DNA from: Karstenula rhodostoma CBS 690.94
Lineage: Eukaryota; Ascomycota; Dothideomycetes; Pleosporales; Didymosphaeriaceae
Assembly: GCA_010093485.1 (NCBI GenBank)
Contig: MU001495.1
Coordinates: forward strand, 1,507,470-1,571,469
DNA: 64,000 bases
Direction: 5' to 3'
The notes under the pieces are model-generated. The model saw only the letters and a list, made by a program, of their open reading frames with translations, had not been told where the DNA came from and searched no databases. Shown here one piece after another: positions 30,076 through 35,651 of the stretch (the stretch's first letter is position 1; the number at the start of each line of letters is the position of its first letter). The translations under genes and the position numbers were made by a program.

Positions 30076-30861
30076 CTAAGAGTGTTTAATGACTGCGTGA
30101 TCAACTGCATTCTCCTCCGTCTCGTCCACCCACTCCCGCAACCGTTCCCAGTCCACACAGACATGTTCCGTCCCAAAGCCCGTAACACCACCCAGTGTCT
30201 TATTTGTTACCTCAAGCGTGAGATCAGCATTACACATCAGACTCTGCCGCAGCAGCTCAATGCAATGGTTCATGTGCCATTTGTCGAATGCAGGGTCGCC
30301 AGGTCCGGCTCCGTTCCGTTTGTGGTGGGCTGGGTCGACTGCGGCCCAGTAGATGTGGCGGATGGCGTTCTGATTCACGAGTCAGGTTGCAGATTTGGAG
30401 CGGAGTGTGTGGGTAAAGACTCACTAAACAATGCAGCTGGTGAAATACCGAGAGGGTACCGCGTTCGGGTGCGATGTCCGGGTGTGGGAAGAAAGTGCTA
30501 GAAGGGAACATTGAGTCCCATGTGTGATCATCGACGTTGTTTGGCTGGACCATGAAAGAGATATCTGGCTGCAAGGCCTTTCTAACGGTGGACACTGTAT
30601 CGTCCTGGATCAACGTAAATCAAGAACTGGAACAGGAGAGTACTCACAATTTGGTCGCACGGGTTTTTCCAGCCGCGCGAAGGAACTACCGGCGAAGAAA
30701 GAGATGACCGCGACAATAGTCACGATACATGTTGCTACGATGATATATATCCATGGTCGGAACGCAATGGTCCGCACCGGGCTTTGAGACTGGTCCTCTC
30801 TTGCTGGATCCAACGGCGCATAACGATGGTCCTCATCATTGCGAGATTTTTCGAACCACAT
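30076..30861 (-). CDS. DUF3328/UstYa-type membrane oxidase, copy 1
   Basis: Members of this family catalyse oxidative cyclisation of fungal ribosomal peptides (UstYa/UstYb in ustiloxin, PhomYc' in phomopsin). Proposed exons 30861-30648, 30594-30425 and 30369-30076 (introns 53 and 55 nt) give about 225 aa. A cytoplasmic N-terminus precedes one membrane helix, residues 37-57 (WIYIIVATCIVTIVAVISFF). The lumenal domain has both hallmark motifs: HQLHC at about 123-127 and HMNHC at about 160-164, followed by IELLRQSLMC. The first intron is uncertain: the strong GTGAGT donor at 30647 needs the acceptor at 30595 to keep frame. It lies about 3.8 kb from the peptide precursor gene. Confidence 0.87.
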
Positions 30862-31921
30862 GCTAATTCCTTCACCTTGCCATGGAATGTTCTCTCATTA
30901 ATGAATTCTTCGGTGACAGGTTTGTCTGGTGTATTTGGTATGCCGGGAGAGCGAAGGTAGATCCGGATGTACGAGGATAGATTTACCATTAGGCAACGAT
31001 TCACTGCCACCATATCGCCCACCATCTAGTGTTCTGCTTACGAAATCTAACTGCTTATCATTGGAAACGATGCTCCAAGTGTATATTACGCTTGATGCAG
31101 GAACTCATCAGGCCCGTAGTCTCTCGTACGACAAGTGCCGCAACGTCACTTACAAGCACGTCACTATCGTAGTTGTATTGACATTCAGTCACCTACAGCA
31201 TGTAGGCGCGTCGTTCTGGATCCCTGTAGCATAGATCCTGCGCCTTACCTGTAATAGCATTGTATGTGGTCGCAGAGGCCATCAGCAGAGCACGGTAGCT
31301 TGCAACGAATATCATCTTTTACTAAGACAGTAAGCGTGGCAAGGATCCGAACCGGCTCCTCTACGTGCTGTAAAAGCATTGGATAATCCGGAGGGTGGTG
31401 ACAATCTATGATATTAATGCAACGCCTTGGAGGTAAAACAATACTCGGCGGGATAGTCAGCCCAATGCACAGACACAAGCTATTACTATGAGGCCAAGCT
31501 TCCCTTCGAAGGCTGACAGCAGTTTTCGGCCCGGCTCTCCGAGTTGGAAGTTTGCATGATGTCGCACACGTATTATGGTTGGAAAGACCGTATAAAGCAG
31601 AAATCATCTCGGTGTTAGGTATACTTAGTCGTGTATTGAACATAGGAAATCATTATTGGGCATGCGTGAACGATTTTATTATTTGAAACACTCTGACAGT
31701 ATGAGCGCATATTGTATAAAATGCGAGAGTTTGTCTGTGGGTACCACACACTCAAACATTTCACTCAGTAACATGCCGTCATAGGCCAAGACAGCGTATA
31801 TTAGAAGCTCTCCGCTCCCGCTATTCCGAAACCCTCGCTTGTAACCTACATGCAGCTCCTTCACCTCACATCATTAGACACATCGATCCCAACAAATCCA
31901 ACCCCTTCCCCATCAGCGACC
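30862..31921. other. Intergenic region within the accessory locus
   Basis: About 1 kb between two divergent genes (UstYa-type copy 1 and the 176-aa ORF). It is comparatively AT-rich; short ORFs show no features. It is a likely bidirectional promoter. Confidence 0.45.
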
Positions 31922-32452
31922 ATGGCTGAATCCGAATCCGGAAACCCCACCGTCCCCGGTGAAGGACGCGCCCATGAGAAACCCTGCCATGTGATCCATC
32001 TCACGTTGCCCTTACATTTCGCCACGCTACAGCTCGACCAGATCCTTCAGGAGCACGCCCGCCAAGCCGAGAAGAGTCCCTCGGAAGCTCCCCGCTCCGT
32101 ATTAGTCGACTGTTCGACCTTGATCCCGAGTGCCTCTCAGCCAGTGCTGTATACAATGTGGATCACACGGGTCAGCACTCCGTCGCTTTTCAGCCTGACC
32201 TGCGTGTGTGAGCATTTGCGGAATCAGCTTATTGAGAACGAGAAAGTTGTTATGTCGATTTTCAACGATACGGGTGGATATGGGGATGCGGGGGAAGCGT
32301 TAGCGGCGGGAACTTACATGGTTGTTTTGAAGAGGGTTGATGTTGAGAAGTTGAGATGTGTACCTGTTAGTTTGTCGAGTCTGGAAAAGAAAGTTGTGAA
32401 GGAGTATTTGGTACATTGTCAGTCTTCCAGTGGTAAACTCGAAGTTGTTTAA
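31922..32452 (+). CDS. Hypothetical protein, 176 aa, within the RiPP-like locus
   Basis: An intronless ORF begun at the ATG at 31922 (gaccATGGCT, a good Kozak context); the frame is open upstream to 31850. The sequence looks like a compact alpha/beta protein (HVIHLTLPLHFATLQLDQIL, SVLVDCSTLIPS, VLYTMWITRV, TYMVVLKRVDVEKL) without signal peptide or membrane helix. I do not recognise the family. It lies between the two UstYa-type genes and on the same strand as copy 2 and the precursor, so a role in the same pathway is possible but rests only on position. Confidence 0.55.
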   Translation: MAESESGNPTVPGEGRAHEKPCHVIHLTLPLHFATLQLDQILQEHARQAEKSPSEAPRSVLVDCSTLIPSASQPVLYTMWITRVSTPSLFSLTCVCEHLRNQLIENEKVVMSIFNDTGGYGDAGEALAAGTYMVVLKRVDVEKLRCVPVSLSSLEKKVVKEYLVHCQSSSGKLEVV

Positions 32453-33821: not shown

Positions 33822-34664
33822 CACACGTCCAAATTCAGGTAACTATAAATGATTACGTTATACGATCTGTGTGTAGCAGTAGTTATCGAAAAAATCAGGA
33901 GTCACAGAATGGAATGTAAGTAGACCGAGTATATGTTTTGTCTTTGGTATGTGTGATTCAACGTGCATGAGCGTTATAATTAAAAAAATTGTCGATACAA
34001 TAAGTCTGCAGGACGAAGATCCTATCCCGATTCTCGATATGCAACTTGAATTCGTATCGGCGTACGAGAAGCAAACCCCAGTTACATATATTATCAACAC
34101 GTGCGAGAAACAGATCTCCTAGTTGCCTGCTATTTGGGACGTGGGACCGTGTCCTGCAGGCGAAATAAACGCCACGCAGATAGCCGATGGATTGTCAAAC
34201 CCATCCTCGTAACATTAAGGGCTATAAAATCTTAGTACTGCTCGAATAACGCCGAATTTCGACATCTCAAGATAACTGGGTGGATTGACTAAGGATAGAC
34301 AGGTCTAAAGTGCCATGTTTGACATTAGAGCAGTGGTAAGGTTGCCCGAGAGTATCCAGGAACTACGAGGGGTATTAGCCGCTGCTGATTCGTTCTCATA
34401 CATATGCATGTGTCAGATGATAGTTCCCCTGCTCGCATCCTTTGTCGTAGGAGGCGTTTGCCAAGTTCGCCCCATGCTACGTAAACATGTCTTACAGGTA
34501 GTATACTGAGCTCTACGCTAGGTACTTCGGCCCTCGGGATAATGGGTGATACAGTTGGGTTTCATAGGTATTTAGGTCTCTTCAGGTCTCTGGACGATCA
34601 GCAGCTTTGAGAGCCAATCTCCTAGTCTACATCCACTTCAGTTTACCTTCTTCCCAAGGCCAAG
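33822..34664. promoter_or_regulatory. Promoter region of the repeat precursor gene
   Basis: 843 bp. A TATA-like ctataaaat lies at about 34222, some 440 bp before the ATG. A short direct repeat, aggtctct, occurs twice around 34567-34586. No gene is supported. Confidence 0.4.
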
Positions 34665-35651
34665 ATGCCTTCGCTCTCCAAGCCCATGAACGCGCTCGTT
34701 ATCCTCCTTTCTGCCCTCGGCGTTGTCAACGCTGCCCCCGTCCCTACTTCAAACGAACCAATACCCGTACCTGATCCAAAAGACATTCCTGAGGGCGTCC
34801 ACTACTGGCCAATTGACGAAGATGAGAAGGACCGCCTGTCCAAGCTGTTGAACATTGACTTCCGCTCCCTTAATATCCTGGGCACCTTTGTCAAGGCACC
34901 AAAGGCAACATGCGAGGGCTGTGGTAAGCGAAGTGGCCTCGAAGACTTCGTCGACAACGTAAGTGAGATTATCATCAGACTATGATACCAACCTCACGCG
35001 ATATGCAGGCACTCAAGGCCAACATTCACACTCGAGAATGGATGGTCGATGTGCTCAAGAGAGGCGGCCACAACGCTAGCCCAGCGCACGAACTCCAGTG
35101 CGCCAACTGTGAGACCAAATTCATGCGCAGGGATCTTGAGGTTGCAGATACTGAGAACATGGCCAAGCGCGATGACCCCGGTTTCCAGTGGGCATCTAAC
35201 TTCAACTGGATCTTCGGTAGAGACGCCGAAGCCGTTGCCGAAGCCGTCAAGCGTGATGACCCAGGCTTTCAATGGGCATCTAACTTCAACTGGATATTCG
35301 GTAGAGACGCCAAAGCTGTTGCCGAAGCCGCTGCCGAAGCCGCCAAGCGTGATGACCCAGGCTTTCAGTGGGCATCTAACTTTAACTGGATCTTCGGCAG
35401 AGACACCGAAGCAGAAGTTGCAAAGCGCGACGGTACGTAACTCCCATGGACCAAGAGGGAAGGCTTCAACCTAAACACCTCGTACCTCAACTACACTTTC
35501 TGACTTACACTGACTTCGCGCCACGCGTCTAGACCCTGGATTTCAATGGGCATCCAACTTCAACTGGATTTATCAGAGCCCGCCCAAAGCTAGAGATGCT
35601 GAAGTAGATGCCGTTGCCGAAGTTACCAAGCGCGATGACTCGGGCTTCTAG
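34665..35651 (+). CDS. Secreted kexin-processed repeat peptide precursor (putative RiPP precursor)
   Basis: Three exons, 34665-34958, 35009-35432 and 35533-35651 (introns 50 and 100 nt), give 278 aa. A signal peptide (ALVILLSALGVVNA, cleavage near residue 23) leads into a 125-residue leader with CEGC and CANC pairs and its own KR sites. From residue 151 there are four units, each opened by KR and the core DDPGFQWASNFNWI. Units 1-3 continue FGRD with an Ala/Glu spacer; unit 4 continues YQSPPKA with a longer spacer. A fifth KR opens DDSGF and then a stop. This is the layout of kexin-processed cyclic peptide precursors (ustiloxin, phomopsin, asperipin type). The core itself is unfamiliar. With two UstYa-type genes adjacent, a cross-linked aromatic peptide is the best hypothesis. 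A mating pheromone precursor is the main alternative. Confidence 0.88.

What the first reader, a model, noticed from the sequence alone, without database searches (positions are those of the whole stretch)
30076..35651. Candidate new dikaritin-like RiPP locus: repeat precursor with two UstYa-type oxidases
Seen: a secreted precursor with four KR-delimited copies of DDPGFQWASNFNWI, and two DUF3328 genes with paired HxxHC motifs, all within 5.6 kb. Known: in ustiloxin, phomopsin, asperipin and related fungal RiPPs, Kex2 cuts such repeats and UstYa-type proteins oxidatively cyclise them. Inference: this locus makes a cross-linked aromatic peptide. The core has Phe and Trp but no Tyr in units 1-3, unlike the Tyr-containing cores of ustiloxin, phomopsin and asperipin, and the locus lacks the usual tyrosinase, methyltransferase and transporter, so chemistry and core differ from what I know.
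Basis: partly seen in the sequence, partly recalled or inferred. Interest (0 to 1): 0.92.

Follow-up and report, generated by a model that had tools for sequence, protein, structure and literature searches.

The report
Fungal repeat-peptide cassette with copper oxidases
A fungus carries a three-gene cassette: a secreted protein cut into repeated copies of one Trp/Phe-rich peptide, and two copper-type oxidases that probably modify it; the kind is known, but this peptide was not found described and its chemistry is untested.

Summary
A precursor of 278 residues (34665-35651, three exons) carries four KR-delimited copies of DDPGFQWASNFNWI, the fourth reached by splicing, plus a decayed fifth copy that supplies the stop. 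Two DUF3328/UstYa genes with complete paired HxxHC motifs lie beside it, all within 5.6 kb. A protein search found two relatives of the precursor, both Paraphaeosphaeria sporulosa. There the three genes bear consecutive locus tags (DPSP01_005737-005739) and all six core copies equal the window's. Between the window's four copies the core differs by 11 base changes, all silent. The natural reading is a minimal dikaritin-type RiPP cassette: Kex2 cuts the repeats, dicopper UstY enzymes oxidise them. That oxidation happens, and where, is inferred. New member of a known kind; the open, testable point is whether a UstY enzyme cross-links Trp.

The parts
30076..30861 (-). UstYa-A, DUF3328 (PF11807) oxidase, 225 aa, three exons 30861-30648, 30594-30425, 30369-30076; HQLHC and HMNHC motifs, one long hydrophobic N-terminal helix
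   Evidence: Pfam 105.8 bits; orthologue P0006 DPSP01_005737, 84%; AF2 model of P0006 has helix 36-64 and helices 120-138 and 154-174 holding the two motifs
32944..33821 (+). UstYa-B, DUF3328 (PF11807) oxidase, 258 aa, exons 32944-33214, 33265-33485, 33537-33821; HQLHC and HLGHC motifs, hydrophobic N-terminal segment
   Evidence: Pfam 91.5 bits; orthologue P0003 DPSP01_005738, 84%
34665..35651 (+). Repeat precursor (Kex2-processed repeat protein), 278 aa, exons 34665-34958, 35009-35432, 35533-35651
   Evidence: orthologue P0001 DPSP01_005739, 327 aa, six copies
34665..34733 (+). Signal-peptide-like N-terminus MPSLSKPMNALVILLSALGVVNA
   Evidence: Read by eye from the translation
34734..35170 (+). 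Leader with CEGC and CANC pairs and dibasic sites GKR, LKR, MRR, AKR (holds intron 1, 34959-35008)
   Evidence: Well conserved in P0001 (there LKR reads LKK)
35171..35221 (+). Core copy 1 DDPGFQWASNFNWI followed by FGR
35255..35305 (+). Core copy 2, followed by FGR
35351..35401 (+). Core copy 3, followed by FGR
35429..35579 (+). Core copy 4, split by intron 2 (35433-35532), followed by YQS instead of FGR
   Evidence: the intron matched only itself in the genome
35634..35684 (+). Core copy 5, decayed: its first TAG ends the reading frame
31922..32452 (+). Unnamed ORF (176 aa from its ATG) between the two oxidases; no Pfam match, no second copy found; belonging to the cassette is doubtful
   Evidence: no locus tag between 005737 and 005738 in P. 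sporulosa

Best explanation
A minimal dikaritin-type RiPP cassette. The precursor enters the secretory path, a kexin cuts at KR (and RR), and UstYa-A and UstYa-B, membrane-anchored dicopper oxidases facing the lumen, oxidise the released or still-joined DDPGFQWASNFNWI units, most simply by closing one or two side-chain rings that use Trp and Phe. Other peptidases trim the FGR-(D/E)AxxA spacer, and the product is secreted. Shown here: the genes, the repeats, conservation of the core and of the three-gene set, the intact motifs, a kexin in the genome. Inferred: Kex2 cutting, oxidation of this peptide by these enzymes, the kind of bond, the trimming. The confidence given is for oxidation of this peptide by these enzymes; for ring closure in particular I would say about 0.55.
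For: Three genes within 5.6 kb with consecutive locus tags in P. sporulosa. Both oxidases keep HxxHC...HxxHC, the dicopper site whose His/Cys mutants lost activity in CctR (PMC12435403, parts 1 and 2 of 3 read). DUF3328 enzymes are said to use a dicopper site for the Tyr-O to Phe-Cbeta ether of asperipin-2a (PMC12186524, passages). One match to the proprotein-convertase P domain in the genome, in a frame that also has an S8 domain. In PMC7329392, 22% of 7878 such precursors have DUF3328 genes among the 15 nearest genes. In this genome 8 of 18 other UstY loci that I read also hold a repeat precursor (17 further loci not read).
Against: No product, expression or enzyme data. No tyrosinase, which ustiloxin needs. 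DUF3328 enzymes also act in non-RiPP pathways (PMC12048977) and do hydroxylation, halogenation and desaturation, so modification need not be a cross-link. UstY relatives at 64-65% occur in Paraconiothyrium brasiliense (UstYa-B) and in unnamed sources (both), yet no precursor relative from these turned up; missing annotation or another core could explain it, but it is not support. The decayed fifth copy and the intron inside copy 4 show some erosion in this strain. P. sporulosa synteny rests on locus tags; I could not read its DNA. The three-copy-only reading (no splicing of intron 2) is not excluded.
Confidence: 0.8

Rival explanations
1. The precursor yields a linear secreted signal or effector-like peptide (pheromone-like), and the two oxidases act on something else.
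For: 6120 of 7878 Kex2-processed repeat proteins have no DUF3328 gene near (PMC7329392); the acidic Ala/Glu spacers recall alpha-factor spacers (recalled); the core lacks Tyr, the usual residue.
Against: Consecutive three-gene set in P. sporulosa; almost all (three exceptions) annotated pheromone precursors lack DUF3328 neighbours (PMC7329392 abstract); no MF_alpha or other Pfam match over its cut-off.
Confidence: 0.12
2. Same cassette, but the oxidases hydroxylate, desaturate or otherwise oxidise the core without closing a ring (a sub-case of the main reading on what the genes do, a rival on the bond).
For: DUF3328 members hydroxylate (CctR, PMC12435403), and three of them, PhomYc, PhomYd and PhomYe, are thought to install dehydro residues (PMC10880069 passage); the core has Pro, Asp, Ile, Asn, Ser as targets.
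Against: Core rich in paired aromatics (F-Q-W and N-F-N-W), invariant over the 10 intact copies seen, which fits aromatic coupling better; not decisive.
Confidence: 0.25
3. A decaying locus: the precursor no longer yields the product in this strain.
For: Fifth copy carries stops; intron inside copy 4; copies 4 and 5 lack the FGR tail.
Against: Four clean core copies with purely synonymous differences, both oxidases open and motif-complete.
Confidence: 0.1

Closest known systems
Asperipin-2a cluster (aprA, aprY, aprT, aprR; Aspergillus flavus)
   Same: Precursor peptide gene with a DUF3328 oxidase; the four listed genes include no tyrosinase, methyltransferase or peptidase
   Different: Core FYYTGY is Tyr-based; one oxidase instead of two; has a transporter and a reductase, none recognised here (PMC6514808 passages)
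Ustiloxin cluster (ustA, ustYa, ustYb, ustQ and others)
   Same: Repeat precursor cut by Kex2; a pair of DUF3328 enzymes
   Different: Core YAIG; needs tyrosinase UstQ and further tailoring genes (PMC6514808 passages); no tyrosinase in this window
DUF3328-linked Kex2-processed repeat proteins (survey PMC7329392)
   Same: Signal peptide, at least 3 repeats between dibasic sites, DUF3328 gene nearby; 34.4% of these repeats lack Tyr and 20.5% hold Trp
   Different: Five pieces of this core string gave no paper in the held library; the survey's supplementary tables were not readable here. It used annotated proteins, and the P. sporulosa entry P0002 lacks the repeats, so it may have been missed (inference; I do not know which P. 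sporulosa proteins the survey held)
Plant burpitide cyclases (BURP-domain)
   Same: Copper- and O2-dependent; couple Tyr, Trp or His to a C-H bond of another residue (PMC12874468 passage)
   Different: A plant family, not tested here for kinship; a chemical analogy only

Membership tests
Kex2-processed repeat protein (PMC7329392 criteria) | Signal peptide | tested here: inconclusive
   Typical by eye; SignalP not available
Kex2-processed repeat protein (PMC7329392 criteria) | At least 3 tandem repeats of at least 8 aa between KR/KK/RK/RR sites | tested here: met
   Four copies, three even without splicing intron 2
Dikaritin, broad definition (DUF3328 as class-defining enzyme, as reported in PMC12048977) | DUF3328 protein with two HxxHC motifs | tested here: met
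   Two proteins, PF11807 over cut-off, both motifs in each
Dikaritin, broad definition | Precursor with repeated cores linked to the DUF3328 genes | tested here: met
   Same locus; consecutive tags in P. sporulosa
Dikaritin, broad definition | Oxidatively modified product | not testable with these tools
   Needs mass spectrometry and NMR
Dikaritin, 2015 five-gene definition (as reported in PMC12048977) | Tyrosinase in the cluster | tested here: not met
   33 tyrosinase matches in the genome, none in the window
Dikaritin, 2015 five-gene definition | Methyltransferase in the cluster | tested here: inconclusive
   51 Methyltransf_25 matches, none in the window, but 50 of 81 candidates were scored and only this one methyltransferase family was searched
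Dikaritin, 2015 five-gene definition | Transporter or peptidase in the cluster | tested here: inconclusive
   No S41 peptidase in the window; ORFs scanned near the cassette show none, but not all ORFs were scanned and MFS/ABC families were not searched. An Ostalpha-like transporter ORF lies about 19 kb away
Alpha-pheromone precursor | Pfam MF_alpha motif | tested here: not met
   No match; filamentous-fungus pheromones often lack this motif (recalled)

The most novel reading that the evidence does not exclude
The two dicopper UstY enzymes cross-link tryptophan: each F-x-W / N-F-N-W half of the core is closed by a bond from a Trp indole (N or C) to an unactivated C-H, giving a mono- or bicyclic Tyr-free peptide, made by three genes without tyrosinase. 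This would extend fungal DUF3328 cyclisation from Tyr to Trp, in parallel with plant BURP cyclases, and three further Trp-bearing, Tyr-free repeat precursors beside UstY genes in this genome (cores around ESIWT, AFPGWI, DDVWLW; L021, L022, L025) would be candidates for the same chemistry.
Probability: 0.35. Interest if true: 0.68.

Novelty: new member of a known kind. Interest (0 to 1): 0.42.

Why it matters
A 2025 paper defines DUF3328 as a family of dicopper enzymes (PMC12435403), and which residues they can join is open. A three-gene cassette with a short invariant Trp/Phe core is about the smallest test of whether they act on Trp. It also shows a single fungal genome, probably Pleosporales, with at least eleven repeat precursors beside UstY genes, 5 of 11 of them Tyr-free (classed by eye), so the class looks chemically wider than its characterised members.

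Tried and rejected
Chance repeat: rejected (0 hits in 105 single-base shuffles; synonymous-only differences). Repeated-element origin of intron 2: its 100 bases matched only themselves in the genome (one candidate scored). Paralogous precursors: none in the genome at E up to 10 (two candidates scored). A clade of UstY enzymes that tracks Tyr-free cores: a tree of 19 UstY pieces gave no grouping (Trp group 5 changes, shuffled mean 4.6; Tyr group 4 against 5.2, as low in 83 of 500; all groups 10 against 9.8; 1 of 16 inner branches well supported). Left out of that tree: the pieces of L020, L027, L028 and L032 printed. So no evidence for a 'Trp clade', and little power to see one. A solved structure of the family: no PDB sequence match for UstYa-B up to E 10 and no Foldseek match at or below E 0.001 for the P0006 model, 13 meaningless ones up to E 10 (mean pLDDT 76.7, pTM 0.62); the model's copper geometry was not measured, and UstYa-B was not modelled. 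First splice model of UstYa-A (228 aa, used) was wrong at intron 1 by a few residues; corrected by hand to 225 aa, the length of P0006, and rescanned. Pfam PF26731, listed for P0001 in the protein database, is absent from the library here and could not be named. Control for the repeat scan in unshuffled DNA: only the rest of the window (about 58 kb, no other hit), too little to be strong; so a rate of repeat precursors away from UstY genes is not known for this genome.
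Full report
What is there. The window lies on contig C4 of a 44.3 Mb, 29-contig genome. From 30076 to 35651 it holds two DUF3328/UstYa genes and a repeat precursor. UstYa-A (minus strand, 225 aa) and UstYa-B (plus strand, 258 aa) each have three exons, an N-terminal hydrophobic segment and both HxxHC motifs. The precursor (278 aa, three exons) begins with a signal-peptide-like stretch, goes on with a leader that has two CxxC pairs and several dibasic sites, and ends with four units of KR-DDPGFQWASNFNWI separated by acidic, Ala-rich spacers. 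A fifth copy follows, decayed by stop codons.

Is it real. The repeat scan found no such frame in 105 single-base shuffles. Copies 1-4 differ by 11 base changes over 14 codons and every variable codon (8 of 8) is synonymous, where 83% of random single changes would alter a residue. Gene conversion among copies could contribute, but would erase differences rather than leave only silent ones.

Relatives. Of about 5.8 billion proteins, 7994 candidates sharing most words were scored and two matched the precursor at E up to 10: P0001, DPSP01_005739 of Paraphaeosphaeria sporulosa, 327 aa with six copies of the identical core, and P0002, another P. sporulosa entry that shares the N-terminus, then appears to read into intron 1 and another frame, and lacks the repeats. 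UstYa-B has three relatives: DPSP01_005738 (84%), one of Paraconiothyrium brasiliense (64%) and one unnamed (65%). UstYa-A has 139 (120 listed), the best DPSP01_005737 (84%), then 64% and lower, by the names given mostly ascomycetes. The consecutive tags 005737-005739 mean that the set is conserved in order in a related fungus. No precursor came with the P. brasiliense or unnamed relatives, which is no support either way. I take the window's fungus for a Paraphaeosphaeria or near kin, not P. sporulosa itself, since the oxidases differ by about 16%. The FGR after the core is kept in 9 of 10 intact copies; copy 4 of the window has YQS.

How it probably works. The genome gave one match to the proprotein-convertase P domain, in a frame that also holds an S8 protease domain: a kexin. 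CctR, a characterised DUF3328 enzyme, is membrane-associated, proposed to face the organelle lumen, and holds two copper ions per monomer in HxxHC(x)nHxxHC; His and Cys mutants lost activity (PMC12435403, parts 1 and 2 of 3 read). Another paper states that DUF3328 enzymes use a dicopper site to make the Tyr-O to Phe-Cbeta ether of asperipin-2a (PMC12186524, passages); the primary paper was not held. The AlphaFold2 model of the UstYa-A orthologue shows the same order of parts: a long N-terminal helix, then two helices with one motif each. So the two enzymes very probably oxidise the repeat peptide in the secretory path. Which atoms are joined, or whether a ring forms at all, cannot be read from sequence.

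How unusual is it. The survey PMC7329392 (abstract; section on DUF3328; part 1 of 2 of the section on diversity; methods) gives 1758 DUF3328-linked repeat precursors; 65.6% of their repeat sequences contain Tyr and 20.5% Trp; Trp is not enriched against precursors without DUF3328 (24.5%). The four genes listed for asperipin-2a include no tyrosinase, methyltransferase or peptidase. In this genome PF11807 gave 59 matches, exon by exon, at 36 loci when matches within 15 kb are joined. I read 18 of the 35 other loci; 8 of 18 hold one or more repeat precursors, 10 in all, 11 with the window's (overlapping shadow frames set aside and the rest classed by eye; only single open frames of 60 aa or more were scanned, so some may be missed; the di-His one, L017, is the weakest). 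Six of the 11 have Tyr in the repeat, four have Trp without Tyr (window, L021, L022, L025), one has a His-His repeat (L017). UstY sequence does not visibly track this.

Absences. Tyrosinase (33 matches), S41 peptidase (5) and Methyltransf_25 (51; 50 of 81 candidates scored) occur in the genome but not in the window. Flanking genes are ordinary: carbamoyl-phosphate synthase small chain, a GH3 glycosidase, a Zn2Cys6 protein, GRAM/VASt, Ras, kinase, MCM5 among others. A P450 ORF lies at 16961-17860, 12 kb away beyond unrelated genes.

Novelty. Five pieces of the core string gave no paper in the held library. Searches for DUF3328 or UstYa with tryptophan, and for fungal RiPPs with Trp, listed no report that by title or abstract start describes a UstY product with a Trp bridge; subscription papers are mostly missing, the lists were cut, and only abstracts, sections or passages of a few listed papers were read. 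So: a new member of a known kind, with one open point of real interest, Trp as the residue acted on.

Noticed in passing
L014, L015, L016, L017, L021, L022, L025, L027, L029, L033 (regions of the same genome): Ten further repeat precursors beside UstY genes, with repeats around QWYDITYV, SSYA, VDQAFVNVAYYGL, HHKG, ESIWT, AFPGWI, DDVWLW, KSVGVYATDD, ATYAPLVYTGG, TEFAPWYRATNILPASD. The genome is rich in such loci.
   Followed up: partly
G000 contig C17, about 36900-39130: Two UstY matches next to tyrosinase matches: may be an ustiloxin/phomopsin-type locus. Not read.
   Followed up: no
window 35433-35532: A 100-base intron sits inside core copy 4 and matched only itself in the genome. Whether the P. 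sporulosa gene has it cannot be seen from its protein; it may be an intron gained inside a repeat.
   Followed up: partly
window 31922-32452: An ORF of 176 aa without Pfam match or second copy lies between the two oxidases; P. sporulosa has no tag between its orthologues.
   Followed up: partly
P0001 (P. sporulosa precursor): The protein database lists a Pfam family PF26731 for it, which is not in the library here; possibly a newer family of such precursors or leaders.
   Followed up: no
P0002 (CC84DRAFT_1164979): This P. sporulosa gene model appears to read into the first intron and loses the repeats, so surveys of annotated proteins could miss this precursor.
   Followed up: partly
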